DNA from: Legionella steelei
Lineage (GTDB): Bacteria; Pseudomonadota; Gammaproteobacteria; Legionellales; Legionellaceae
Assembly (NCBI RefSeq): GCF_001468005.1
Contig: NZ_LNYY01000005.1
Coordinates: 62,001-126,000, forward strand
Length of the DNA stretch: 64,000 nt
Direction of reading: 5' to 3'
A model generated the notes under the pieces. It was not told the origin of the DNA, ran no database searches, and was given only the letters and a program-made list of their open reading frames with translations. Shown here piece by piece: positions 16,329 to 28,702 of this stretch (its first letter is position 1; each line of letters starts with the position of its first letter). Position numbers and translations under genes: made by a program.

Positions 16329-17138
16329 TTAGCTAAATATGGCGATTAACTCGATTACTGGCCGACGTAGTGAGCCTTGGCAATTAATAAAACGTGATAC
16401 TGGGAAGCTCTTGATTTCTGCTTTTCTATAATGGTATCGAGTAAATTCCGTGTCGTGATTGGACAGAATGACAGGAATCCCTTTTGCTGCTGTTTCTTTA
16501 GCCAGCTCAGTGAGTTCTATTTGATCTTCTGTAGTAAACAGTTTTTTAGTGTAGGGCAAATGGTGTGATTTCTCTGAAAGAAGTACATAAGGTGGATCAC
16601 AATAAATGACATCACCGCGTTCGGCGTTTTCAAATGTTTTTCTAAAGTCTTGATGGATGAACTCCGCATGTTGGCTCTTCTGATGAAAAAGCTGCATTTC
16701 CTTCTGGGGAAAATAGGGTTTGTTGTATAGGCCAAATGGAACATTATAAAACCCTTTAGAATTATATCGGCATAATCCATTGTAACCGTGCCGGTTTAGG
16801 TAAAGAAAAGAAGCTGATTTTTGTGGTGAATGAGCCGATTCATTAAAATCAGATCTTATTTGATAATATTTTTCTTTCTGATTGAATTCTGGACTGAAAT
16901 AGGCTTCACAGAGCTTAATAAATGCACTTCCTTGCTGTTGCAATGTAGTGAAAAGATAAATTAAATCTTGATTGCTTTCTGCCAACAGGTGGGAGGAATA
17001 ATGCGTATTCATAAACACAACGCCTGAACCAGCGAAGGGCTCAATTAAGCGTTTACCCGGAGGAAGAAAGGGAATAATCTTTTCTAGGCAGTTATATTTA
17101 CTACCTGCCCATTTAAGGAAAGGCCTTATTTTAACCAT
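16329..17138 (-). CDS. dam: DNA adenine methyltransferase (Dam type)
   Basis: Class alpha N6-adenine methyltransferase, predicted to methylate GATC. Motifs in the expected order: FLKWAGSK near the N-terminus, SAM-binding IEPFAGSGVVF near residue 35, and catalytic YCDPPYVLL near residue 178; PVILSNHDTEF near 223 matches motif VI of the Dam family. Length about 269 is typical. ATG 17138 is favoured; GTG 17150 is an alternative and neither has a strong ribosome-binding site. No restriction partner is adjacent, so it looks like an orphan Dam used in repair and regulation. Divergent from umuD. Confidence 0.9.
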   Translation of the reverse strand: MVKIRPFLKWAGSKYNCLEKIIPFLPPGKRLIEPFAGSGVVFMNTHYSSHLLAESNQDLIYLFTTLQQQGSAFIKLCEAYFSPEFNQKEKYYQIRSDFNESAHSPQKSASFLYLNRHGYNGLCRYNSKGFYNVPFGLYNKPYFPQKEMQLFHQKSQHAEFIHQDFRKTFENAERGDVIYCDPPYVLLSEKSHHLPYTKKLFTTEDQIELTELAKETAAKGIPVILSNHDTEFTRYHYRKAEIKSFPVSRFINCQGSLRRPVIELIAIFS

Positions 17139-17271
17139 AGGTTTTACCACGATTTATTCAGAAAGAAGTATTGCTTATTTTTAAGAAAAAAAACAGAATT
17201 TTTTGTTGTAAAATTTTATTTCATGATAATGTTTATAACCATATTTACAATGAATTAATATGTTCTTATCA

Positions 17272-17294
17272 TTGATTTTTGTTGCAAAAATCAA
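17272..17294 (+). promoter_or_regulatory. perfect palindrome before umuD, candidate operator
   Basis: TTGATTTTTG (17272-17281), TTG, CAAAAATCAA (17285-17294): ten-base perfect arms around a three-base spacer. It ends 9 bases before the umuD ATG. A palindrome with the same TTGATT/AATCAA ends stands before umuC. No LexA box (CTGT-N8-ACAG) was found here. Confidence 0.5.
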
Positions 17295-17303
17295 ATGTGA
17301 GGC

Positions 17304-17837
17304 ATGATGAGTCAACGTGGAGGTAAACGAGAAGGAGCTGGGCGCCCTTTAGGTAGGGGGAAATATGGATTAGAGCCAACTAAAGCAATACGGATTCCCC
17401 TTTCTCGTCTTCCGGAAATTCACGACCTATTGGAAAAGGAACCTAAAACATATCAATTGCCTCTGTATTCCAGCAAAGTCCAAGCAGGGTTTCCTTCTCC
17501 AGGTGATGATTATATTGAACACTATTTGGATTTAAATCAACAATTAATAAAACATCCTGCCGCGACATTTATTCTTACTGCGACCGGAGATTCGATGATT
17601 GATGCAGGAATTCATTCGGGTGATCTTTTAATTGTGGACAAGAGTCTTGAAGCACAGCATGGAAAAATTGTGATTGCAGCGCTCAATGGTGAGTTAACTG
17701 TGAAGCGTTTATCTAAAGTTGGCGGACGCGTGCAGCTTCTTCCTGAAAACCCAAAGTACAAACCAATTGATATTACAGATGGACAAGATTTAGTGATTTG
17801 GGGCGTAGTGACTTATGTAATTCATATGCCGAATTAA
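17304..17837 (+). CDS. umuD: UmuD-like S24 peptidase, DNA polymerase V accessory
   Basis: Self-cleaving subunit that activates UmuC to form error-prone polymerase V. The S24 fold is clear: cleavage bond A61-G62 in VQAGFPSP, catalytic Ser97 in TGDSMIDAG, and catalytic Lys134 in ELTVKRL. The pre-cleavage arm is about 60 residues, against 24 in E. coli, and begins with a basic GGKREGAGRP stretch that could contact nucleic acid. A second ATG at 17307 is better spaced from GAGG. umuC is not next to it but 9.6 kb downstream at 27437. Confidence 0.92.
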   Translation: MMSQRGGKREGAGRPLGRGKYGLEPTKAIRIPLSRLPEIHDLLEKEPKTYQLPLYSSKVQAGFPSPGDDYIEHYLDLNQQLIKHPAATFILTATGDSMIDAGIHSGDLLIVDKSLEAQHGKIVIAALNGELTVKRLSKVGGRVQLLPENPKYKPIDITDGQDLVIWGVVTYVIHMPN

Positions 17838-17871
17838 TAGTAAGTGTTCAACAATGGCGTCAGCTTTAGAA

Positions 17872-17933
17872 TAGCCTGGATGAAGGTCTGAAGGACTGTA
17901 ACCCGGGTTTCACTTTCGTTGAACCCAGACTAG
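17872..17933. repeat. GTAGCC...GGCTAC repeat, copy 5 (degenerate)
   Basis: TAGCCTGGATGAAGG at one end and GAACCCAGACTAG at the other, with ACCCGGGTTTC in the middle, form a decayed copy. It sits between the 3' ends of umuD and the PhyH gene. Confidence 0.65.
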
Positions 17934-17944
17934 ATATAATCAGT

Positions 17945-18793
17945 TCAGCATTCCCAAATTACAGGAAATAGAGGATGTTCCATTGGCACACCTGCAGGAA
18001 GCTGTTCGAGTAGCCCTGGAAAATCAGGTGATGTGATCCATTGTCTTGGCGCATGTGTTATGTCATCGCCGAGGAATCGTAGAGAATATACTCTTCGTCT
18101 TTGGTGATAATGCACCCCGCTTGCAGAGTGCAGCGTGAGCATATGAAAGCAAACAACATCACCAGGATTTATTTCCCAACTTATGATGGGATAATATTCG
18201 CGTTGCGCATCAATATTGGGCAGTTCAGAAAGACTTCCCTCCGGAAACCATTTGGCTTGATTATCCATAAAAGAGCGGGGCATGAGCCATGGTCCTAAAT
18301 GAGAACCCGCTACGAACTCTAAAGTGGACGCACGCGGTACTGGATCAACAGGTATCCATAAACTGCAATTTTGCCTCCCTGCCACATTGTAATAAGGTTG
18401 GTCTTGATGCCAGGGTGTCCTTTGTCGAGTACCTGGTTCTTTAACTAAAAGATGATCATGATACAGTCGAGTTTTTTTACTCTCCATGAGTTTGCCTGCA
18501 AGAAGACTGGCTGGTGATTCAAAAATAAATTGTTGGTAATGAGGGTTCGTTTGCCAGGTACAAAAGTCTTCAATAAATTGTCCTGGATCATCGCTTTTGC
18601 TGGCTATTTTGGCCCTATGGCTGAGCGATTTGAGGTTGAGCTCAATGCCTTCACGCAGTAACTCTATTTCTTCAGAACTTAGCATTTGACGAACACAAAC
18701 GGCACCATCTTTTTTATAAGCATCAAGATGAGCTTGAGTAACTGTTGCTTCAACACGTTGAATAATTTGCTGAGAAATGGAATGGTTTTTCAT
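17945..18793 (-). CDS. phytanoyl-CoA dioxygenase (PhyH) family protein
   Basis: Non-haem Fe(II)/2-oxoglutarate oxygenase of the PhyH family, 282 residues. The iron triad is readable as H129-x-D131 in WHQDQPYY and H222 in LTLHSASG, with the oxoglutarate-binding Arg in the following RRRVYSLRF. PhyH proteins hydroxylate diverse small molecules, so the substrate cannot be named. It stands alone, convergent with umuD and divergent from the MHS permease. Fold call strong, role unknown. Confidence 0.82.
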   Translation of the reverse strand: MKNHSISQQIIQRVEATVTQAHLDAYKKDGAVCVRQMLSSEEIELLREGIELNLKSLSHRAKIASKSDDPGQFIEDFCTWQTNPHYQQFIFESPASLLAGKLMESKKTRLYHDHLLVKEPGTRQRTPWHQDQPYYNVAGRQNCSLWIPVDPVPRASTLEFVAGSHLGPWLMPRSFMDNQAKWFPEGSLSELPNIDAQREYYPIISWEINPGDVVCFHMLTLHSASGVHYHQRRRVYSLRFLGDDITHAPRQWITSPDFPGLLEQLPAGVPMEHPLFPVIWEC

Positions 18794-18972
18794 TTGTTGG
18801 TGCAGAACAATATATTACTTCCATTGATAATACTCGAACTCAAGAAAAAGAACTATTTCTAGAAGAATTTATAAAAATGAGAATGATAACAAAAGCTTGT
18901 TTTAAAAAAACTCATGAGAGCAATGAAAAGTTATGATATTTTACTGCTTTGCTATAAAACAAGGATTTGTAA

Positions 18973-20256
18973 ATGCAAGAGTTGAAATTAAGTTCGAGTG
19001 AACGAAAAATTATTTTTCTTGCCTCTTTAGGTGGTGCTTTGGAGTTTTATGATTTTGTCATTTACGTTATTTTTGCACCAATAATCAGCCAGATTTTTTT
19101 TCCGGAAACTGACAAATTGGCGTCACTGATGAGTGTGTATGCTGTTTTTGCGATTGGCTATTTAATTCGTCCTTTAGGTGGGGTTGCTTTTAGTCATTTT
19201 GGGGACAAATACGGTCGCAAGAAAACGTTTGTTTTTTCAGTTATCCTAATGGCTGTTCCAACGGTTCTTATTGGGTTTTTACCTACTTATCAACACATAG
19301 GCATCTTTTCGAGTATCCTTTTGATTTTTTTACGCTTATTACAAGGATTATCGATTGGTGGAGAAATTCCAGGTGCATTAACGTTTACTTGTGAGCATGT
19401 CAATCCTCGTTCCCGAGCGCTTGCTTGTGGTGTTATCTTTTCTTTTCTTAATTTAGGTATTTTTCTAGGGGCTCTGATAAGTTTAATCTTAACGAATCAA
19501 CTTTCAAAAGCTCAATTATTAAGCTTTGGTTGGCGCATTCCGTTTATATTTGGCGGACTGCTGGGAATATTTAGTTTCTACATCCGTAAACGATTGGCTG
19601 AAAGCCCATTATTTCTTGCTTTTAAGAACTCATCCGAAAGTACGCGCGTGCCTTTTGTTGAAGCAATTACCTTGTATTGGCGAAAGATTTTGCAAGGCAT
19701 TGGGGTAACGTGTTTGGGTTCGGTCATGATTAATTTGTTATTCTTATATATGCCTACGTACCTTTCAACAATCCTTGCTTATCCAAAACAGCAAGCGACC
19801 TTATTTAATACGATTAATTTGGGTTTTTATTCCTTGTTATTGATATTTTTTTGCTGGTTTGCTGATCGAGTGGGCCGTAAGCTAGTTCTTTTAATCGGCG
19901 CAGTTGGGTTTATTTTATTAAGCCATTTTTTATTTATTATGTTATCCCAGCAAACTACATGGTCATTGACTACCTCTTTAGCTATTTTTGCTATTTTGAG
20001 TAGTTCCATTATGGTTTATCCCAGCTTACTGGTTGAGCTATTCCCTGTGTCAATTCGTTATACTGGGATTGCTATTTCTTATAATCTTGCATTTGCCTTT
20101 TTCGGAGGTTTAACTCCATTCATTGTTACTTATTTAATTGAGAAACTAAACAACAATCTTGCGCCGAGTTTTTATCTCATGCTGAGTGCAATGCTGTGTT
20201 TTATCGCCGTATTAACTATTAAAAAACTCTATGCAGAAAAGGAGGTTTTATCGTGA
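18973..20256 (+). CDS. MFS permease, metabolite:H+ symporter (ProP-like) family
   Basis: A 427-residue inner-membrane permease. The N-terminal GGALEFYDFVIY is the hallmark of the metabolite:proton symporter family (ProP, KgtP, ShiA), followed by the loop HFGDKYGRKKTF near residue 77, LQGLSIGGEIPGA near 130, and WFADRVGRK near 297. Substrates in this family are organic acids or betaines. Its stop overlaps the start of a secreted nucleoside hydrolase (GTGA), which suggests it may take up what that enzyme releases. This link is inference. Confidence 0.82.
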   Translation: MQELKLSSSERKIIFLASLGGALEFYDFVIYVIFAPIISQIFFPETDKLASLMSVYAVFAIGYLIRPLGGVAFSHFGDKYGRKKTFVFSVILMAVPTVLIGFLPTYQHIGIFSSILLIFLRLLQGLSIGGEIPGALTFTCEHVNPRSRALACGVIFSFLNLGIFLGALISLILTNQLSKAQLLSFGWRIPFIFGGLLGIFSFYIRKRLAESPLFLAFKNSSESTRVPFVEAITLYWRKILQGIGVTCLGSVMINLLFLYMPTYLSTILAYPKQQATLFNTINLGFYSLLLIFFCWFADRVGRKLVLLIGAVGFILLSHFLFIMLSQQTTWSLTTSLAIFAILSSSIMVYPSLLVELFPVSIRYTGIAISYNLAFAFFGGLTPFIVTYLIEKLNNNLAPSFYLMLSAMLCFIAVLTIKKLYAEKEVLS

Positions 20257-21263
20257 ATTGTGCAGTAAAAGCTTTTGTCTTATTCAGTTTGTTTTTGTGC
20301 TTGTCTCTGGCAAATGCGGTGAGGCCTTTTATTATTGATACGGATGTGGGGGTGGACGATGAATTGGCAATTCTTTATTTGTTAGCACAAAAAGATATTG
20401 ATGTTAAAGCGATTGCTGTAGTGGGCACCGGGGAGGCTCATTGTTCCGCCGGATTAAGAAATGTTGCTGGATTGTTGTCCTTGATGCATCATGAACACAT
20501 TCCACTGGCTTGTGGTCGTGAGACACCTATGGCTGGAACGCATCAATTTCCTGATTGGTTACGTAAACTCGCTGATAATTTAGTCGGGGCTGCTGATTTA
20601 TTGCCACAAGTTCAAGTAACATCTTCGCAGACTGCAATTCAATTGTTGGAGTCCACCTTAAAAAGCGCAAAAGAGCCTGTTGAGATTTTAGCGATTGGCC
20701 CTTTAACCAATCTGGGTGAGCTTGTGACCCAAATGCCAGAACTAAAAAATAAAATTAAAATGATTTATATCATGGGTGGGGCAGTGGATAGCCCTGGGAA
20801 CATAGTAGAGGTGGAGCCTTCAATTAAAAATAATACTGCAGAATGGAATATTTATGTTGATCCTTATGCTGCAGACAAAGTATTTCGTTCTGGAATCCCT
20901 ATCACCATGGTTGGCCTGGATGTGACCAATCAGGTTCCCGTAACCAAAGCTTTTTATCAGAAACTGAAACAAAACCAATCGAATCTCGCCAATCATTTTT
21001 TCTATGAATTGTTTCATCACAATGAGGCCGAAATATTTGAACACAAGTGGTATTTTTGGGATGTACTCTCGGCGGTAATTGCCTATGATGATTCAATTGT
21101 TCAATCCAGCAATAAAAAATTACGTGTTGTATTGAGCCCAGAAGAGCGGGCAGGGACTACAGTAGTGGATAATGAGGGTAACACGGTACGAGTATGTACT
21201 TCCGTAAATCAAGAACAATTTGAACATGTTTTAATGGATACACTAAAAAAGAAAATGTCCTGA
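20253..21263 (+). CDS. secreted nucleoside hydrolase
   Basis: Inosine-uridine-preferring nucleoside hydrolase family, 336 residues: cleaves ribonucleosides to base and ribose. A signal peptide (hydrophobic residues 5-20, cleavage about ANA22) places it in the periplasm or outside the cell; most family members are cytoplasmic. The calcium-binding N-terminal DTDVGVDDE (29-37) is intact and MIYIMGGAV is recognisable. GTG start at 20253 with GGAGG 7 bases upstream; overlaps the permease stop by four bases. Confidence 0.85.
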   Translation: MNCAVKAFVLFSLFLCLSLANAVRPFIIDTDVGVDDELAILYLLAQKDIDVKAIAVVGTGEAHCSAGLRNVAGLLSLMHHEHIPLACGRETPMAGTHQFPDWLRKLADNLVGAADLLPQVQVTSSQTAIQLLESTLKSAKEPVEILAIGPLTNLGELVTQMPELKNKIKMIYIMGGAVDSPGNIVEVEPSIKNNTAEWNIYVDPYAADKVFRSGIPITMVGLDVTNQVPVTKAFYQKLKQNQSNLANHFFYELFHHNEAEIFEHKWYFWDVLSAVIAYDDSIVQSSNKKLRVVLSPEERAGTTVVDNEGNTVRVCTSVNQEQFEHVLMDTLKKKMS

Positions 21264-21272
21264 TTGGTGATT

Positions 21273-21307
21273 GTAGCCTGGGTAAAACGTATCGAAACCC
21301 AGGCTAC
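21273..21307. repeat. GTAGCC...GGCTAC repeat, copy 6 (short)
   Basis: GTAGCCTGGGT and ACCCAGGCTAC arms with a 13-base loop. It lies 10 bases after the nucleoside hydrolase stop and 12 bases from the carbonic anhydrase stop on the other strand; a good bidirectional terminator candidate. Confidence 0.85.
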
Positions 21308-21318
21308 AAAACACTTTT

Positions 21319-22059
21319 TTAATTAGGGACAGAACGCTTTTCTTCAAAAAATTCTATCTTGCCTGTTTTGATGTCATGTAGTCCCGCCACAATTCCTATT
21401 TGTTTTTTACTAATTAACTCTTTGATTATTGGGCTTCTTTCTTGTATTTCTTTGACTACTCTCAAAGCATTCGCTTTAGCGATCGCATCAATTAATTTGG
21501 GTTCACTGCAATTCTTTGTTCCCTGTTCTTGCATACTCATTTGCACAACAGGCTTAATTTTGTCTAAAACATCGGTGAGATGTCCTAGCTGAACCCCATC
21601 ACATGCACCAGCAACGGCACCACATGACGTATGTGCCAAGACAACAATAAGACGAGAGCCCGCTGCTTTAGTGGCAAACTCCATACTGCCTAGAATGTCA
21701 TCATTGAGTACATTTCCGGCGACGCGTAAGGTAAATAAATCAGCTAAACCTTGATCAAAAAAGAATTCAGGAACACTACGTGAATCCATGCAATTAAGAA
21801 TTACTGCAAATGGGTATTGTCCATAAGAGGATTGATGTGCTTGCTTTAAATAATCTCTTGATATTTGGGTGTTGGTTAAAAAACGTTGATTTCCATCTTT
21901 TAAGCGTTGCAGCGCTTGTTTCGGGGTCATCTGTTGTTGCTTTGCTTGTGTTATTGTTTTACCTAAAACAGGTGCTTCTGGGGTATTTGAGTTTGCAAAG
22001 CTCGTGGAAGCACAACTAAAACCAAATATTAATATCAAAATTTTTGTCAGATGCTGCAT
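21319..22059 (-). CDS. beta-carbonic anhydrase, exported
   Basis: Zinc enzyme that interconverts CO2 and bicarbonate. The beta-class site is complete: C90, D92 and R94 in LNCMDSRSVPE, H143 and C146 in LAHTSCGAVAG. The N-terminus is a signal peptide (hydrophobic residues 6-16, likely cleavage near SFA22), so it acts in the periplasm. Length 246 fits. GGAG 8 bases before the ATG. Gene stands alone, converging on the nucleoside hydrolase. Confidence 0.9.
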   Translation of the reverse strand: MQHLTKILILIFGFSCASTSFANSNTPEAPVLGKTITQAKQQQMTPKQALQRLKDGNQRFLTNTQISRDYLKQAHQSSYGQYPFAVILNCMDSRSVPEFFFDQGLADLFTLRVAGNVLNDDILGSMEFATKAAGSRLIVVLAHTSCGAVAGACDGVQLGHLTDVLDKIKPVVQMSMQEQGTKNCSEPKLIDAIAKANALRVVKEIQERSPIIKELISKKQIGIVAGLHDIKTGKIEFFEEKRSVPN

Positions 22060-22160
22060 TGTAAATGCTCCATGTTAATTAGAAATTATCCCTTATTGAG
22101 AATAACTTAATTTTGCATAATGTACACGCTAAAAAGAGAAATAGCGGTTTTTGGGGAATC

Positions 22161-22195
22161 GTAGCCTGGGTTTTGCTTCGCTTCATCCAGGCTAC
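22161..22195. repeat. GTAGCC...GGCTAC repeat, copy 7 (short)
   Basis: GTAGCCTGGG...ATCCAGGCTAC hairpin with TTTTGCTTCGCTTC between. It ends 6 bases from the stop of the DUF2269 gene, so it is 3' of that gene. Confidence 0.8.
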
Positions 22196-22200
22196 ACTTT

Positions 22201-22671
22201 TTAAAAACCAGCAGGTTTATTGGTCATTAGGTAAAAAACAATAATCAGACTAATAAATGCTGGCCAACCTAAGCAAAACCAATATTTAAAATAGCGGAAG
22301 TAAATAGGGGGCAAGGGGGTATTTTTTTGTTCTGCCTCCGTGGCAAAATCGCGCATTTTAATCTGGAGATACACCACAGGAAACCAGCAAAACGCTGCGA
22401 TTAAATAGCCAATAATTGATCCCATCACCCATAAAGAAGTCCATGCATAGCCGGCTAAATAGACCATCCATAATCCCGTAACTGGTTGAATAAAACCAGA
22501 GGTTCCAGTAAAGATCCAATCGGCAAGCACAACATAGCGTGTTGTTGCTGCAATCACTTCAGTTTTACCAGTTCTATGTCCGTACAGCATGGTACAGGCA
22601 GTTCCTATACCCGTGCCAAAGAGAATAGTTGAACTGATAACATGAATAAATTTGAGCCAAAAATAGAGCAT
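22201..22671 (-). CDS. DUF2269 integral membrane protein
   Basis: A 156-residue inner-membrane protein with four hydrophobic segments. The N-terminal LKFIHVISSTILFGTGIGTA, with the conserved His, and ADWIFTGTSGFIQPVTG are typical of DUF2269. Function of the family is unknown. Its ATG overlaps the stop of the SDR-DoxX gene (TAATG), so the two are translated together; the partner also ends in a four-helix membrane domain. Confidence 0.8.
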   Translation of the reverse strand: MLYFWLKFIHVISSTILFGTGIGTACTMLYGHRTGKTEVIAATTRYVVLADWIFTGTSGFIQPVTGLWMVYLAGYAWTSLWVMGSIIGYLIAAFCWFPVVYLQIKMRDFATEAEQKNTPLPPIYFRYFKYWFCLGWPAFISLIIVFYLMTNKPAGF

Positions 22672-23969
22672 TATCGATCAGACTCCAGGGCTAAAGAAAT
22701 GCATATTGCAACCAAAAGTGGAATATTTTTCGCTAAAGGCGCAAACGGTTCAAACCATAAATTAGGAAGTTTCCACGTTAATAGAGCACTATAACCTAAA
22801 ATAATAAGGATTTGTAATAGGGTAATTTTTTTTAATTGATTGCTGAACAACACAGCCAAACCAATAACTGCATCAAGAATGCTCGCGCCATAAAATAAAA
22901 TCGGTTGCCAGAATGCGTTCACCCCAATTTGCGCCAAAAGTCCATAAGAGGCTGCTTTAGGGTAGAAAAACAGGCAACTGATTGCCGTAAATAACCAGAT
23001 AAATGCAATACTAAATTTTAAAATGGGTTTAAGAAAATAAAGTCGCGCATGCCAACGATCCTGAATGGAGCTGGGATGGCGATACATTCCCTCCGGAAAT
23101 GCTTGTGGTGTAAAACCAATTTTGTTTTGAAACGTTTGTGTTTCTTCCGAGCTTGTAATGCTGTTTTGCACAAGTAACTTATAAGAGTTCGTATTCAAGA
23201 CAGAGTATGGGATTAAATCGCCAATAAATGATGCAAGTCGGATAAGTGTTACAGGCACAAAACATAACCTTGATTTGGCAAAACCCAGCCAGGAGCGCAT
23301 GTGGGTTAGGATATTATTTAAGTTAATCTGTTTGGCACTTACAGCATGTAACAGCAAATTCTGTTCTGAAGGAAGCTCCATGAGTTTGATGATGGCTTTA
23401 GATAAGTCTTCAACATGAATGGGTTGAAATTCCTGTGTCCCGTGCCCCGGTACAGGGGTAATCCAAGGTAATCCACAAAGACCACGAAATAAAGAAGAAC
23501 CTCCATAAGAGCCGCGTCCATAAACCAATGAGGGGCGAAGAATAATTGATGGAATAGGGAGGGTTTGTAAATAGTCATCAGCCGCTTTTTTACTTTGAGC
23601 ATAAACTACATCGGATGTCTCAACACCAAGAGCAGAGATTTGTATAATCTTTTTTACTCCGACCTGGACGCATGCATCAAATAATGCTTTCGGCGTCTTA
23701 TAATGAATCGACCATATTATTTTATTATTTGGATGGTAGAGAATTCCTACACAATTGATTACCAGGTCAATCTGTTGTAAACGTTCTTTCCAGTGATTGA
23801 TGGATTGATCATGGATAAAATCACAGCGAATGACACGTGTTGTGGAGAATAGTTTTTGCGTAAACGCAACATCACGGACACAGCATGTAACGGCATGTCC
23901 GGCGGCAATGAGATCAGTTACAATGTGAGAGGCAATAAAACCTGATGCACCAGTGACCAATATATTCAT
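22671..23969 (-). CDS. SDR/NmrA-type NAD-binding protein fused to DoxX-like membrane domain
   Basis: 432 residues in two parts. Residues 1-290 are a Rossmann-fold extended SDR: TGASGFIAS at 6-14, a YAQSK catalytic-type motif near 123 and LRPSLVYGRG near 143. Residues 315-432 hold four membrane segments of the DoxX-like type. The SDR half is like NDUFA9-type epimerase homologues that bind quinone or lipid substrates. Likely acts at the inner membrane. AAGGG precedes the ATG. The downstream DUF2269 gene overlaps it. Confidence 0.8.
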   Translation of the reverse strand: MNILVTGASGFIASHIVTDLIAAGHAVTCCVRDVAFTQKLFSTTRVIRCDFIHDQSINHWKERLQQIDLVINCVGILYHPNNKIIWSIHYKTPKALFDACVQVGVKKIIQISALGVETSDVVYAQSKKAADDYLQTLPIPSIILRPSLVYGRGSYGGSSLFRGLCGLPWITPVPGHGTQEFQPIHVEDLSKAIIKLMELPSEQNLLLHAVSAKQINLNNILTHMRSWLGFAKSRLCFVPVTLIRLASFIGDLIPYSVLNTNSYKLLVQNSITSSEETQTFQNKIGFTPQAFPEGMYRHPSSIQDRWHARLYFLKPILKFSIAFIWLFTAISCLFFYPKAASYGLLAQIGVNAFWQPILFYGASILDAVIGLAVLFSNQLKKITLLQILIILGYSALLTWKLPNLWFEPFAPLAKNIPLLVAICISLALESDR

Positions 23970-24064
23970 TGCAGACCCTTAATCGTTTTTCTCTTGGCGT
24001 AATAATAAATTATCTGAGACTTTTTTTCAGCTGACATGCGTTTGAAAAATTAAGTCAAGAAATC

Positions 24065-24150
24065 CCTTCTCCCTAAAAGGGAGAAGGTGACTGCAGGGGC
24101 GAATGAGGGATGCCCTCGTTCCGACCCTCTCTCACGTGGGAGGGGGAGCT
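24065..24150. repeat. CCCTTCTCCC palindromic repeat
   Basis: CCTTCTCCCT (24065-24074) and AGGGAGAAGG (24078-24087) form a perfect ten-base hairpin, followed by GCGAATGAGGGATGCCC and a second hairpin-like CCCTCTC...GTGGGAGGG. The same module, differently arranged, occurs at 50840-50941. Confidence 0.75.
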
Positions 24151-24176
24151 TCTGGGAATTTGTAGAAGATTAGTGA

Positions 24177-24563
24177 TTAAGCCTCTTTTAATTGCGGATT
24201 CAAAGAGAAAATACGAATCCTATGCTGATCTGGATCAAGTGCTACAAAAGTATAACCAAAATCCATCATTGTTGGTTTTTGGGCAATTTGTATTCCTTGT
24301 TGTTGCCAAAGTGCATAAAGCTCATCAATTGCGCGATCATCTTGTACTTGCAGTGACAGCTCATTTCCCCCGCCAAGCAGGGTAGCATGGGGTTCAACAG
24401 AGTGTTTCGACCATAAACCAAGACGCATCCCTGATTTCAATACAAACATGACAAAAGTAGGTGATGAACCTATGGGTTGGCTCTTAAGTATTCCTTCGTA
24501 AAAAGGTGTACTTATTAGAGGATTATCGACGTAAAAAATTATTAAATTTGGATCAAGATGCAT
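24177..24563 (-). CDS. VOC (glyoxalase/bleomycin-resistance) superfamily protein
   Basis: A 128-residue protein with two beta-alpha-beta-beta-beta units: FYVDNPLISTPFYEGIL near the start, and the C-terminal TMMDFGYTFVALDPDQHRIRIF, whose DPDxHRIRIF is typical of VOC proteins related to phenazine or drug binding. It lacks a clear complete metal site, so it may bind rather than convert its ligand. AAGGAG 8 bases before the ATG. Monocistronic, ligand unknown. Confidence 0.78.
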   Translation of the reverse strand: MHLDPNLIIFYVDNPLISTPFYEGILKSQPIGSSPTFVMFVLKSGMRLGLWSKHSVEPHATLLGGGNELSLQVQDDRAIDELYALWQQQGIQIAQKPTMMDFGYTFVALDPDQHRIRIFSLNPQLKEA

Positions 24564-24743
24564 AATAAACTCCTTTTGATTTAACGGAGATAAGAGTTTA
24601 AAGGATCGTACTGACAGTTTTTGTCAGCAGTGATTGACTCCGATAATACAAGATATGGATAAGCAAAGTGATTGGTGTTTTAATATCGCCAAAGTGGCTC
24701 TGGCCAATAAGTAAAGACAGGAATATTTATAAGGAAGTTGATC

Positions 24744-25829
24744 ATGAATAAGTTTTACGTCGATCCTGATATCGCACAAGCCGCTACTTTACCTGCACAT
24801 TTTTATACGTCTTTGGAATGTTTCGAACAAGCAAAAGAAAAGATATTTGCCAGGACTTGGCAATTTTGCTGCAGTACAGAAAGCTTGCGGTTAGAGGGGC
24901 AACTGGTGCCTTTTACCTTATTGCCAGGATTGTTGGATGAACCTTTATTATTTGTGCGAGATGAACAAGACCGTTTTCGTTGTCTCAGTAATGTATGTAC
25001 TCATAGAGGGAATATCTTAATTGATGCACCATGTTCTGCCGAGAAAATTAAATGTTCCTACCATGGACGTAGATTTAATCTATGTGGTGAACTTCTGCAT
25101 ATGCCTGAATTTGAGAAGACCTGCAATTTTCCAACGGCGCAGGACAATTTGTCGCAGATCCCATTTGATTGTCTTGATCCCTTTCTTTTTGCTTCATTAG
25201 CGCCGCAAATATCTTTTAAGGATGTGTTTGTCGATATTAAGGAACGCCTTTTTTGGTTACCCATGGAAAAAATGCGTCTCGACAGCAATCGTTCACGTGA
25301 TTACTTAGTTAAAGCGCATTGGGCATTGTATTGTGAAAACTATCTCGAAGCATTACACATTCCCTTTGTCCATCATTCGTTAAGAAAAGTGATTGATTGT
25401 ACCACTTATACCACAGAACTTTATCGCTATTGTAATTTGCAATTGGCGCTAGCCAGTCCTGGTGAGGAAAGTTTTGATTTGCCTAAGGATTCCCCTGATT
25501 ATGGCAAACAAGTTGCTGCTTATTATTATTGGATTTTTCCAAATACCATGCTTAACTTTTATCCGTGGGGATGTTCTGTCAATGTAGTAAAGCCAATGGG
25601 ACCTGAATTAACTAAAGTTTCCTTCTTAACGTACGTTCTTGATGAATCTAAGCTAGGTAAAGGTGCTGGCGGTGATTTGGATAAAGTGGAACGTGAAGAC
25701 GAGGCAGTTGTCGAGTCAGTTCAACGAGGGATTCGTTCGCGTTTTTATGAGACGGGTCGCTTCTCTCCGACAAAAGAACAAGGAACTCATCATTTTCAGC
25801 GTCTACTTTGTGAATTCCTTAATGATTAA
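24744..25829 (+). CDS. Rieske non-haem iron oxygenase, alpha-subunit type
   Basis: Aromatic-ring-hydroxylating oxygenase family, 361 residues. The Rieske [2Fe-2S] cluster ligands are C85-x-H87 in NVCTHRGN and C104-x2-H107 in CSYHGRRF; the catalytic iron site is in ENYLEALHIPFVHH near residue 200. Members of this shorter group demethylate or hydroxylate quaternary amines and aromatic acids; the substrate is unknown. No reductase gene is adjacent. ATG 24744 preferred: AAGGAAG six bases upstream, whereas the TTG at 24738 overlaps that site. Confidence 0.85.
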   Translation: MNKFYVDPDIAQAATLPAHFYTSLECFEQAKEKIFARTWQFCCSTESLRLEGQLVPFTLLPGLLDEPLLFVRDEQDRFRCLSNVCTHRGNILIDAPCSAEKIKCSYHGRRFNLCGELLHMPEFEKTCNFPTAQDNLSQIPFDCLDPFLFASLAPQISFKDVFVDIKERLFWLPMEKMRLDSNRSRDYLVKAHWALYCENYLEALHIPFVHHSLRKVIDCTTYTTELYRYCNLQLALASPGEESFDLPKDSPDYGKQVAAYYYWIFPNTMLNFYPWGCSVNVVKPMGPELTKVSFLTYVLDESKLGKGAGGDLDKVEREDEAVVESVQRGIRSRFYETGRFSPTKEQGTHHFQRLLCEFLND

Positions 25830-25905
25830 TGGATTTTTAATGATTAATAGATAAACAATAGTGACTATTAACACCGGATGATTTTTCTCTGGAATCAAGG
25901 ATTGA

Positions 25906-27348
25906 ATGATGCACGAATTAGCTCAAGAGCCTGTGCTGAAACGAAAGCTCAATGCACGTATATTGGGAATGATCACCTTGGGTGGCTCTATTGGAACGGG
26001 TATTTTCTTAGCGAGTGGTAATGCTTTATCCGTGGCGGGGCCTGGTGGTACTTTGTTTGCCTATTTGATCATGGGAATCATGGTCTATTTCTTGATGGCT
26101 AGCCTTGGTGAAATGGCGGCATTCATGCCGACTAGTGGATCATTTTATGTTTATGCCGCGCGCTTTTTCGACCCATCTTTAGGGTATGCGCTGGGATGGA
26201 ATTATTGGTATAGCTGTGCCATTTATATCGCGTCAGAAATTTCTGCTTCTGCATTAATCATGCATTTTTGGTTTCCTGAGAGTTCATCATTACTTTGGTG
26301 TTCTGTTTTTCTCTTTTTGATTATTGGTTTTAATGCAATATCCACTAAAGCATTTGGTGAGATGGAGTATTGGCTTTCATTTATCAAAATTTTTGTCATT
26401 ATTTTATTTATTGTCACCGGTGTTTTCTTGGTTTTTGGTTTCACAGAGTACAAAGCAGGTGGTTTTCAAAATTGGCGCATTGGTGATGCTCCGTTTCATA
26501 GTGGATGGATTGGTATTCTTGGTGCTTTTGTCGCAGCAGGTTTTTCTTTTCAAGGTACTGAGTTAATTGGAGTTGCTGCAGGAGAGAGTGAACAGCCTGA
26601 GAAGACGGTTCCCAAGGCGATAAAAATGGTCTTTTGGCGTATTCTCATATTTTTCATTTTATCACTTTTTATTATCAGCCTGTTAATTCCCTATACTGCA
26701 TCACAATTGGTTAGCTCTGATGTGGTAACGAGTCCTTTTACCTTAGTGTTTCAACAATACAATAAAGCGTTTGCAGCAATGATTATGAACGTGGTCATTC
26801 TTATTGCGGTCATATCAACAGCAAATTCAAGTATGTATGTTGGTAGCAGAATGCTTTGGTATCTAGCTAAGGAAGGGCATGTTCCTCGAGTTTTTTCTGT
26901 TGTTAACCGAAGAGGAGTACCCATCTATGCTTTAGCTTTAACGAGTGCTATTGCTATGTTGGCTTTTTTATCTTCCATTTTTGGTAACGGTACGGTTTAT
27001 TTTTGGTTGCTCAATGCAACAAGTCTTTCCGGTTTTATTGCCTGGATGGGAATAGCAATAAGTCATTACCGCTTCCGCAAGGCTTATTTGCATCAAGGAA
27101 AAGATCCAGCCAAGCTTCCTTATTTAGCTAAGGGATATCCTTTTGGACCCTTGTTTGCTTTTGGTGTATGCATTATCGTGATTGGCGGACAAAATTATAC
27201 GGCCTTAATGGCAACTCCTATTGATTGGTATGGCTTGCTTATTTCTTATATTGGTGTGCCATTGTTTCTCATGCTCTGGATTGGAAATAAATGGATTAAA
27301 AAGACCAAAATGATTCCTTTGAGTGAGTGCCAGTTTCACTGCGAATAA
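25906..27348 (+). CDS. amino-acid permease (AAT family)
   Basis: A 480-residue inner-membrane APC-superfamily transporter with about 12 segments. The N-terminal MITLGGSIGTGIFLASG and SLGEMAAFMPTSGSFYVYA match the amino acid transporter (LysP/AroP/GabP) family, as do GTELIGVAAGESEQPEKTVPKA near residue 225 and the NSSMYVGSRMLWYLAKEG segment near 307. AAGGA precedes the ATG pair at 25906. Which amino acid is not decidable; Legionella uses amino acids as its main carbon source. Confidence 0.88.
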   Translation: MMHELAQEPVLKRKLNARILGMITLGGSIGTGIFLASGNALSVAGPGGTLFAYLIMGIMVYFLMASLGEMAAFMPTSGSFYVYAARFFDPSLGYALGWNYWYSCAIYIASEISASALIMHFWFPESSSLLWCSVFLFLIIGFNAISTKAFGEMEYWLSFIKIFVIILFIVTGVFLVFGFTEYKAGGFQNWRIGDAPFHSGWIGILGAFVAAGFSFQGTELIGVAAGESEQPEKTVPKAIKMVFWRILIFFILSLFIISLLIPYTASQLVSSDVVTSPFTLVFQQYNKAFAAMIMNVVILIAVISTANSSMYVGSRMLWYLAKEGHVPRVFSVVNRRGVPIYALALTSAIAMLAFLSSIFGNGTVYFWLLNATSLSGFIAWMGIAISHYRFRKAYLHQGKDPAKLPYLAKGYPFGPLFAFGVCIIVIGGQNYTALMATPIDWYGLLISYIGVPLFLMLWIGNKWIKKTKMIPLSECQFHCE

Positions 27349-27399
27349 GCGGTAATTGCTCAAGATAATGATTTACAAATTGCTTTGTGCAGCTTATAT

Positions 27400-27421
27400 T
27401 TGATTGATGTACATTAATCAA
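27400..27421 (+). promoter_or_regulatory. near-perfect palindrome before umuC, candidate operator
   Basis: TTGATTGATGT / ACATTAATCAA: 22 bases with one mismatched pair around a GT|AC centre. It ends 15 bases before the umuC ATG. It shares the TTGATT and AATCAA ends and the near-start position with the palindrome before umuD at 17272-17294. Confidence 0.5.
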
Positions 27422-27436
27422 AAAGTGACCTAAATC

Positions 27437-28702
27437 ATGTATGCATTAATAGACTGTAATAATTTTTATGCATCGTGTGAGCGTCTTTTTCGCCCTGATT
27501 TACAAGGGAAGCCTATCATTGTGCTGTCCAGTAATGATGGCTGTGTTATTGCTCGCTCCAATGAAGCCAAAGCTTTAGGCGTTGGCATGGGAGAGCCTTA
27601 TTTTAAAGTTAAAGGGTTATGTACACGTCATCAAATTCAGGTATTTTCCTCTAATTTTACTTTATACGGTGATGTATCTCAGCGTGTGATGGCAACTATA
27701 GAGCAAGATTGGCCACAGATGGAAATTTATTCTATTGATGAGGCTTTTCTTGATTTAAGTAGTATGCCTGCACATCTGCATGATGCATTTTGTCTTGCAT
27801 TGCAAAAAAAGATTCTAAAGCATACGGGGATTCCCACCTCTATAGGTATTGGGCAAACGAAAACACTGGCAAAGCTTGCAAATTATCTGTGTAAAAAAGT
27901 CTTAAAAACGCCTACTTTTAATATGAACAATCAAGAGGGGTGGCTGAAAAAAATTGCCATCAATGAAGTATGGGGTATTGGTAGAAAGTGGAGTAAAAAG
28001 CTTATTGATTATGGTATTTATACGGCTTTTGATTTGGTATCGACTAATATTCATATGCTGAAAAAACAGTTTAATGTTGTGATGATGCGTACGGCTTTAG
28101 AGTTGCAAGGTATTCCTTGTCATGATTTGGAAATACAAGAAGCCAAGCAAAGCATTCTATCCTCCAAAAGCTTTGGCTCCATGCAAACGGAGTATACAGC
28201 CGTAGCTGAAGCTTTGAGTAGTCATTGCGCACGTGCCGTTGAAAAATTGCGTGGACAACACTCATTAACACATGGCATGCATCTTTTTATCTACACCAAT
28301 CGCTTTCGAGACGATTTGGCGCAACATGTGCAATCTATTGCAATCCGTTTTGCTTATCCAACAGATGACTTGCGAATCATTACTCACTTGGCAAAGAACG
28401 GTTTATCGCAAATTTTTAAGCAAGGGTATCATTATAAAAAGACGGGGGTATGCCTTGTCGATCTTATTCCTAAAGAGTTACGCCAGCTGGATTTACTTCA
28501 TCAAGTCAGTCAAAAGGAGTTACAAAAGACAGAGGACTTTATGTTAATTTTCGATAAAATTAATCAAAAGTTCGGCCGCAACACTTTATATCTTGCTGCA
28601 GAAGGCTGCAATAGTAAACCTTGGGGTGCGCGCTTACAAATGCGCTCACCACGTTACACTACGTGTTGGTCAGAATTACCTGTAGTGCGAATTGGCAAAT
28701 GA
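27437..28702 (+). CDS. umuC: Y-family DNA polymerase V catalytic subunit UmuC
   Basis: Error-prone translesion polymerase. 421 residues, as in E. coli UmuC. Catalytic carboxylates: D6 in ALIDCNNFYASCE and D101-E102 in YSIDEAFLDLS; helix-hairpin-helix segment NEVWGIGRKWSKKL near 180; the little finger domain and UmuC-specific C-terminal part (ending near PRYTTCWSELP) are present, so this is UmuC rather than DinB. umuD is separated from it by about 9.6 kb. An imperfect hairpin follows the stop. Confidence 0.95.
   Translation: MYALIDCNNFYASCERLFRPDLQGKPIIVLSSNDGCVIARSNEAKALGVGMGEPYFKVKGLCTRHQIQVFSSNFTLYGDVSQRVMATIEQDWPQMEIYSIDEAFLDLSSMPAHLHDAFCLALQKKILKHTGIPTSIGIGQTKTLAKLANYLCKKVLKTPTFNMNNQEGWLKKIAINEVWGIGRKWSKKLIDYGIYTAFDLVSTNIHMLKKQFNVVMMRTALELQGIPCHDLEIQEAKQSILSSKSFGSMQTEYTAVAEALSSHCARAVEKLRGQHSLTHGMHLFIYTNRFRDDLAQHVQSIAIRFAYPTDDLRIITHLAKNGLSQIFKQGYHYKKTGVCLVDLIPKELRQLDLLHQVSQKELQKTEDFMLIFDKINQKFGRNTLYLAAEGCNSKPWGARLQMRSPRYTTCWSELPVVRIGK

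What the first reader, a model, noticed from the sequence alone, without database searches (positions are those of the whole stretch)
17272..27421. Split umuD and umuC share look-alike palindromic operators
umuD and umuC are normally adjacent. Here they are 9.6 kb apart with ten unrelated genes between. Yet each start codon is preceded by a palindrome with TTGATT...AATCAA ends: 23 bases with perfect 10-base arms before umuD, 22 bases with one mismatch before umuC, ending 9 and 15 bases from the ATG. No LexA box was seen at either. L. pneumophila is reported to lack a classical SOS system, so a non-LexA regulator controlling both would keep the split pair in step.
Basis: partly seen in the sequence, partly recalled or inferred. 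Interest (0 to 1): 0.72.

Follow-up and report, generated by a model that had tools for sequence, protein, structure and literature searches.

The report
Self-repressing UmuD operators, LexA-less Legionella
Two far-apart genes for an error-prone DNA repair polymerase carry the same DNA switch, and the switch recurs beside relatives of one of them in other bacteria, which suggests that the UmuD subunit itself acts as the damage-sensitive repressor that is missing in this Legionella.

Summary
The palindromes at 17272-17294 (umuD) and 27400-27421 (umuC) are the only window hits (0.08 expected) and the only sites in the 4.23-Mb genome within one mismatch of the refined motif TTGAWT-N3-GT(N)AC-N3-AWTCAA. 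They are conserved in sister species and overlap the -10 box of TTTACA-N17-TATNNT promoters. The motif stands before 117 of 130 umuD loci whose product has a conserved N-terminal extension (Legionellaceae 73 of 76, Verrucomicrobiota 14 of 14), and before 4 of 18 without it. umuC directly behind umuD has no site (0 of 103); umuC parted from umuD has one in 16 of 20, with at least 7 label changes on a tree. No LexA DNA-binding domain was found. Best explanation: UmuD is its own repressor, as Acinetobacter UmuDAb is; RecA-stimulated self-cleavage at A60-G61 would release both genes and make UmuD'. The shared operator is well supported; UmuD as binder is inferred: the extension's fold is unresolved, and the tree-corrected association rests on 2 contrasts.

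The parts
17244..17272 (+). umuD promoter: TTTACA (17244-17249), 17-bp spacer, TATCAT (17267-17272)
   Evidence: Read; TTTAC[AG] lies 25-33 bp before the operator in 38 of 117 extended-umuD loci with a site, 36 of them at 28-29 bp; 79 of 117 lack that hexamer there
17272..17294 (.). umuD operator, 23-bp palindrome, core GTTGC (one mismatch to the refined motif)
   Evidence: conserved in sister species
17304..17837 (+). umuD, 177 aa (likely start 17307): N-terminal extension plus S24 peptidase/UmuD domain
   Evidence: PF00717 E 1.8e-35; NF007621 E 8.1e-50, over its cut-off
17307..17456 (+). conserved N-terminal extension (GGKREGAGRP...TKAIRIPLSRLPEIHDLL), proposed operator-binding part
   Evidence: alignments A1, A2; no Pfam match for the window's segment; phrog_21736, unknown function, matches 31 of 38 members
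17484..17489 (+). proposed self-cleavage site A60-G61 (numbered from 17307); S96 and K133 follow at 17592-17594 and 17703-17705
   Evidence: invariant columns of A2, 51 sequences; offset of 36 to E. coli UmuD at the start of the PDB match 8gmt; roles of these residues in E. coli UmuD are recalled
27372..27400 (+). umuC promoter: TTTACA (27372-27377), 17-bp spacer, TATATT (27395-27400), same geometry as umuD
27400..27421 (.). umuC operator, 22-bp palindrome, core GTAC, 16 of 16 motif positions
   Evidence: conserved in G127, G014, G135, G113
27437..28702 (+). umuC, 421 aa, Pol V catalytic subunit
   Evidence: PF00817, PF11799, PF13438 over cut-off; best NCBIfam model is UmuC NF002955 at 401.8 bits, under its cut-off of 431
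16329..17150 (-). dam-like adenine methyltransferase on the left of umuD in split and unsplit species (in G099 and G089 about 2 kb away)
   Evidence: PF02086; synteny

Best explanation
The two palindromes are operators of one LexA-independent repressor, most likely full-length UmuD acting as a dimer through its roughly 50-residue N-terminal extension. Bound over the -10 box and start region, UmuD would keep umuD and umuC off together although they lie 9.6 kb apart. On DNA damage the RecA filament would stimulate UmuD self-cleavage at A60-G61 (S96/K133 dyad), which cuts the DNA-binding extension from the dimerising domain, frees both promoters at once and makes UmuD', the active Pol V subunit. 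Shown here: the sites, their conservation, their place in the promoters, their rarity in the genome, their presence before most parted umuC genes, the conserved cleavage residues, and no LexA DNA-binding domain found. Inferred: that UmuD is the binder, that binding represses, and that RecA-stimulated cleavage releases it.
For: Conservation in sister species. 117 of 130 extended-UmuD loci score at least 13 of 16 motif positions, against 1.2% of shuffled upstream regions and 0.93% of 972 windows 400-1400 bp upstream; 127 of the 130 were called by a sequence motif and 3 by eye, none of the 3 with a site. By group: Legionellaceae 73/76, Verrucomicrobiota 14/14, unnamed other Gammaproteobacteria 16/21, named other Pseudomonadota 6/8, Chlamydiota 2/2, Chloroflexota 2/2, Cyanobacteriota 1/2, a cyanobacterial plasmid 1/1, Fidelibacterota 1/1, unclassified 1/1, Acinetobacter plasmids 0/2. 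umuC without umuD within 400 bp upstream has a site in 16 of 20, umuC behind umuD in 0 of 103; the parted label needs 8 changes on the UmuC tree, at least 7 on well supported branches (quick method). Only the umuD and umuC sites are within one mismatch in the genome; of the other 42 places, all at two mismatches, 34 lie inside ORFs and 3 within 120 bp before an ORF start. No PF01726 match. The published UmuDAb operator is TTGA(N4)GTWAC(N4)TCAA (PMC11332147, passages and introduction); two Acinetobacter plasmid loci share the extension and carry TTGATTACGTCACAAAATCAA or the same with a C in first place. In G109 (L. wadsworthii) an extended umuD without umuC coexists with a umuDC operon whose UmuD lacks the extension yet has a 16/16 site.
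Against: No DNA-binding fold was recognised in the extension, and its AlphaFold confidence is low (means of 46-69 per ten residues). 4 of 18 non-extended loci carry the site; 3 of those genomes (G109, G121, G129) have an extended UmuD elsewhere, but in G094 none was seen; its second, weak match was not examined. 13 of 130 extended loci score under 13, two of them the Acinetobacter ones with shorter spacing. The extension-site association gives only 2 independent contrasts on supported branches (median p 0.5). The two window operators differ by 1 bp in length. The umuD cores of this clade (GTTGC, GAAAC and others) depart from GTNAC. The motif was drawn by eye from part of the same loci, and the loci are related and picked by similarity to this UmuD. 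Several phylum labels come from metagenome bins and were not checked; L127 (titled Chloroflexi) and L131 (titled Marinimicrobia) are sisters on the UmuC tree.
Confidence: 0.77

Rival explanations
1. A separate, unidentified transcription factor, not UmuD, binds the conserved operators before umuD and umuC.
For: The extension has no recognised DNA-binding fold; 4 of 18 non-extended umuD loci carry the site, and in G094 no extended UmuD was seen.
Against: The site recurs before umuD on plasmids (L027, whose contig is the 140,878-base L. antarctica plasmid; L168 of Synechococcus) and in distant groups, so its binder should travel with it; of the operon's two products UmuD is the one with a LexA-like build. 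The 8 loci of genus g2 with a different N-terminus have no site (8 of 8 under 12), though they are close kin and fall in few lineages.
Confidence: 0.17
2. The palindrome works as RNA: a 5' hairpin of the transcript that affects stability or translation.
For: It lies at or just behind the expected start of transcription and can pair with itself; two half-site positions (5 and 7) are more symmetric than independence predicts, 99 against 64.2 and 74 against 51.3 of 117.
Against: Positions 6, 8, 9 and 11 are hardly more symmetric than independence predicts (81 against 79.4, 39 against 34.2, 77 against 73.0, 85 against 82.0 of 117), which suits two half-sites read by a symmetric dimer better than a stem; the central G and C of the core, near the loop, are among the most conserved bases; the -10 box overlaps the site.
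Confidence: 0.04
3. Chance AT-rich palindromes.
For: The loose pattern TTGATT-N8..13-AATCAA occurs at 29 places in the genome.
Against: Two at start codons in one window against 0.08 expected; conserved in sister species and beyond; in the genome only these two are within one mismatch of the refined motif.
Confidence: 0.01

Closest known systems
UmuDAb of Acinetobacter (with corepressor DdrR)
   Same: UmuD-like S24 protein with an N-terminal extension; LexA absent; operator TTGA(N4)GTWAC(N4)TCAA before its own gene, other umuDC operons and lone umuC genes (PMC11332147 introduction; PMC4807011 passages); a regulon centred on error-prone polymerases (PMC8565304 passages).
   Different: Here arm-to-core spacing is 5 not 4; the extension adds 36 residues before the cleavage site against 59; UmuD still sits with umuC in most relatives and so would serve as both repressor and polymerase subunit; DdrR was not looked for; homology of the two extensions was not tested because no UmuDAb sequence was reached.
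LexA/SOS box
   Same: Self-cleaving S24 repressor logic with a palindromic operator; the NCBIfam lexA model matches this UmuD's C-terminal part at 95.9 bits, under its cut-off of 110.95.
   Different: No LexA DNA-binding domain (PF01726) found in the genome; different operator.
Canonical E. coli UmuD/UmuC (Pol V)
   Same: Same peptidase domain, cleavage site and partner.
   Different: E. coli UmuD lacks the extension, and umuDC there is LexA-controlled (recalled).
HdiR and the Bacteroidetes LexA-like repressors
   Same: S24 peptidases other than LexA that control polymerase genes (PMC8565304, passages seen).
   Different: Not UmuD: HdiR clusters with Streptococcus phage repressors, and the Bacteroidetes regulators belong to a phage-repressor-like ortholog group (same passages).

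Membership tests
UmuDAb-type UmuD repressor | UmuD-like S24 domain with cleavage site and Ser/Lys dyad | tested here: met
   (by sequence)
UmuDAb-type UmuD repressor | N-terminal extension absent from ordinary UmuD | tested here: met
   offset of 36 residues to E. coli UmuD
UmuDAb-type UmuD repressor | Extension homologous to UmuDAb's N-terminal domain | tested here: inconclusive
   Acinetobacter plasmid UmuD shares the extension, but no UmuDAb sequence was reached
UmuDAb-type UmuD repressor | Operator TTGA(N4)GTWAC(N4)TCAA before own gene and other umuDC/umuC | tested here: inconclusive
   Same arms and a like core, but spacing 5 in place of 4; the exact published pattern has 0 matches in this genome
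UmuDAb-type UmuD repressor | LexA absent | tested here: met
   0 matches to PF01726 in the window's genome; the model rings in 10 of 14 control genomes, E. coli among them
UmuDAb-type UmuD repressor | DdrR corepressor | not tested
   no DdrR sequence to hand
UmuDAb-type UmuD repressor | RecA-dependent cleavage and induction by DNA damage | not testable with these tools
   -
LexA | LexA winged-helix DNA-binding domain | tested here: not met
   only PF00717 matched in this protein; PF01726 has no match in the genome; lexA equivalog model under its cut-off
Ribbon-helix-helix proteins | Recognisable RHH domain | tested here: inconclusive
   no RHH model among the Pfam matches of 38 members at E up to 10, but HMMER's filters drop most weak matches; AlphaFold unsure here

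The most novel reading that the evidence does not exclude
Repressor-UmuD is not a Moraxellaceae oddity but a widespread, possibly ancestral form of Pol V: one protein is damage sensor, repressor and polymerase subunit at once, so that a single cleavage both switches the operon on and makes UmuD'. The operator travels with the genes across distant bacteria, and when umuC is parted from umuD it repeatedly comes to lie behind its own copy of the operator, so the pair stays a two-gene SOS regulon without LexA.
Probability: 0.6. Interest if true: 0.78.

Novelty: new variant of a known kind. Interest (0 to 1): 0.66.

Why it matters
It gives a concrete, testable damage-response circuit to a Legionella in which no LexA DNA-binding domain was found. 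It also suggests that UmuD-type control, which a 2021 paper reports for Moraxellaceae and treats as convergent with that by HdiR (PMC8565304, passages), occurs far more widely. And it shows natural repeats of an operon being split while its control site is kept.

Tried and rejected
LexA control: no PF01726 match in the window's genome; a simple CTG-N10-CAG scan of up to 110 bp before umuD in the loci (the window's umuD among them, a few with little upstream DNA) printed no hit; umuC promoters were not scanned so. Wider regulon: the refined motif marks only umuD and umuC at one mismatch or less; of the other 42 places, all with two mismatches, 34 lie inside ORFs, 5 are intergenic without a start within 120 bp, and 3 lie within 120 bp before an ORF start (L292, L300, L324), which I cannot exclude as weak sites. 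Counts up to two mismatches (19 and 25) are about twice those of the reversed-pattern control (9 and 14). Ribbon-helix-helix idea for the extension: no profile support and an unsure AlphaFold model, so no fold search was run. A tree-corrected test of extension against operator had only 2 usable contrasts. Reaching a chromosomal UmuDAb failed (one search used too strict a cut-off to say anything). Rows dropped: of 196 umuD-like matches in held loci 148 were kept as distinct with at least 100 bp upstream and 120 residues; 3 more were dropped from the tree. Literature: in searches (25 of 140 listed; 12 of 37 listed) and 83 of the held library I saw no title or abstract that describes such operators in Legionella; L. 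pneumophila umuDC on genomic islands is mentioned in PMC3864950 (passages). Most subscription papers are not held.
Full report
Observation. Both palindromes are at the stated coordinates and are far from chance in the window. Both sit in the same promoter frame: TTTACA, 17 bp, a TATNNT -10 box whose last T is the first base of the operator, then 9 or 15 bp to the ATG (read; offsets). Nine genes lie between; six were named by Pfam and are metabolic or transport genes.

Conservation and history. In relatives that share a dam-like gene near umuD, umuC follows umuD within 9-60 bp: G139, G039, G089, G099. In G000, G127, G014 and G135 umuC lies 9.6 to 19.5 kb downstream of umuD; in G113 the two genes are on different contigs. 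All five have the umuC operator with TTTACA 28-30 bp before it. The umuD operator has perfect 10-base arms in these five. On the UmuC tree the parted genes of this clade group with the unsplit orthologues of G139, G039, G089 and G099 at 100% SH-aLRT (quick method), so umuC looks vertical and its operator an added copy.

Parted umuC elsewhere. Among umuC genes in held loci with at least 100 bp upstream, 103 lie within 400 bp behind umuD and none has a site; this control is largely umuD coding sequence and shows only that the site does not belong to umuC as such. 20 do not lie so, and 16 of these score 13 or more of 16. The four without are L176, L181 (little upstream DNA) and two where umuC lies further downstream of umuD (L218, L236). 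The tree, with 18 parted genes among 100, needs 8 changes of the label, at least 7 on well supported branches. In L108 umuD and umuC are convergent, each with a nearly identical operator. In G136 an operator stands before umuC with what looks like a frame-shifted remnant of the start of umuD between them, a possible trace of how a lone umuC comes by an operator: an operon copy that loses umuD.

Who binds. Of 196 umuD-like matches in held loci, 148 were distinct with enough upstream DNA. By motif 127 carried the extension and 3 more by eye; 117 of these 130 score 13 or more, against 4 of 18 without it. The 18 include 8 loci of genus g2 whose N-terminus differs and which have no site. Of the 4 exceptions, three genomes (G109, G121, G129) also hold an extended UmuD; in G094 none was seen. 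This points to UmuD. The tree-corrected test had only two usable contrasts, so the association is suggestive, not proven.

The protein. The peptidase domain keeps the cleavage Ala-Gly and the Ser and Lys of UmuD. The extension has a glycine-rich basic stretch (GGKRxGAGRP) and a TKxIRxP segment followed by a predicted helix at residues 32-43; confidence there is low. Phage protein families of unknown function and one annotated as terminase small subunit (24 of 38 members, best E 0.0013) match it, which fits DNA binding but does not prove it.

Regulon. With up to two mismatches, 44 places were found in the genome; only umuC (0 mismatches) and umuD (1) are better than two. Of the other 42, 34 lie inside ORFs, 5 are intergenic with no start within 120 bp, and 3 precede an ORF start within 120 bp. 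So this looks like a regulon of two genes, with three weak candidates not excluded.

Comparison. Acinetobacter UmuDAb is the closest known system: LexA absent, UmuD-like repressor with an N-terminal extension, operator with the same arms and a like core, targets including lone umuC genes (passages, and the introduction of PMC11332147). Differences: spacing 5 against 4, a shorter extension, and UmuD normally still paired with umuC. Whether it is the same family could not be settled, since no UmuDAb sequence was reached.

Noticed in passing
L190 and L022 (G109, L. wadsworthii): An extended umuD without umuC coexists with a umuDC operon whose UmuD lacks the extension but has a 16/16 operator: a natural parallel to a stand-alone UmuDAb.
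   Followed up: partly
L194-L201 (G095, G078, G065): umuD genes with a different, shared kind of N-terminus and no operator; G095 had 9 UmuD matches, not all of them full-length.
   Followed up: partly
L033, L038 (G098, G091): umuD and umuC transcribed divergently, with an operator-like site (15 of 16) on the umuC side.
   Followed up: no
window 21272-21310, 22160-22198 and a weaker copy near 17871-17930: Palindromic intergenic repeats of the kind GTAGCCTGGG...CCCAGGCTAC; a similar one lies near umuD in L017 (G127). Seen by eye.
   Followed up: no
phrog_21736: A phage protein family of unknown function, profile length 94, matches the UmuD extension (31 of 38 members, best E 3.6e-14): possibly a free-standing form of the domain.
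   Followed up: no
   Followed up: no
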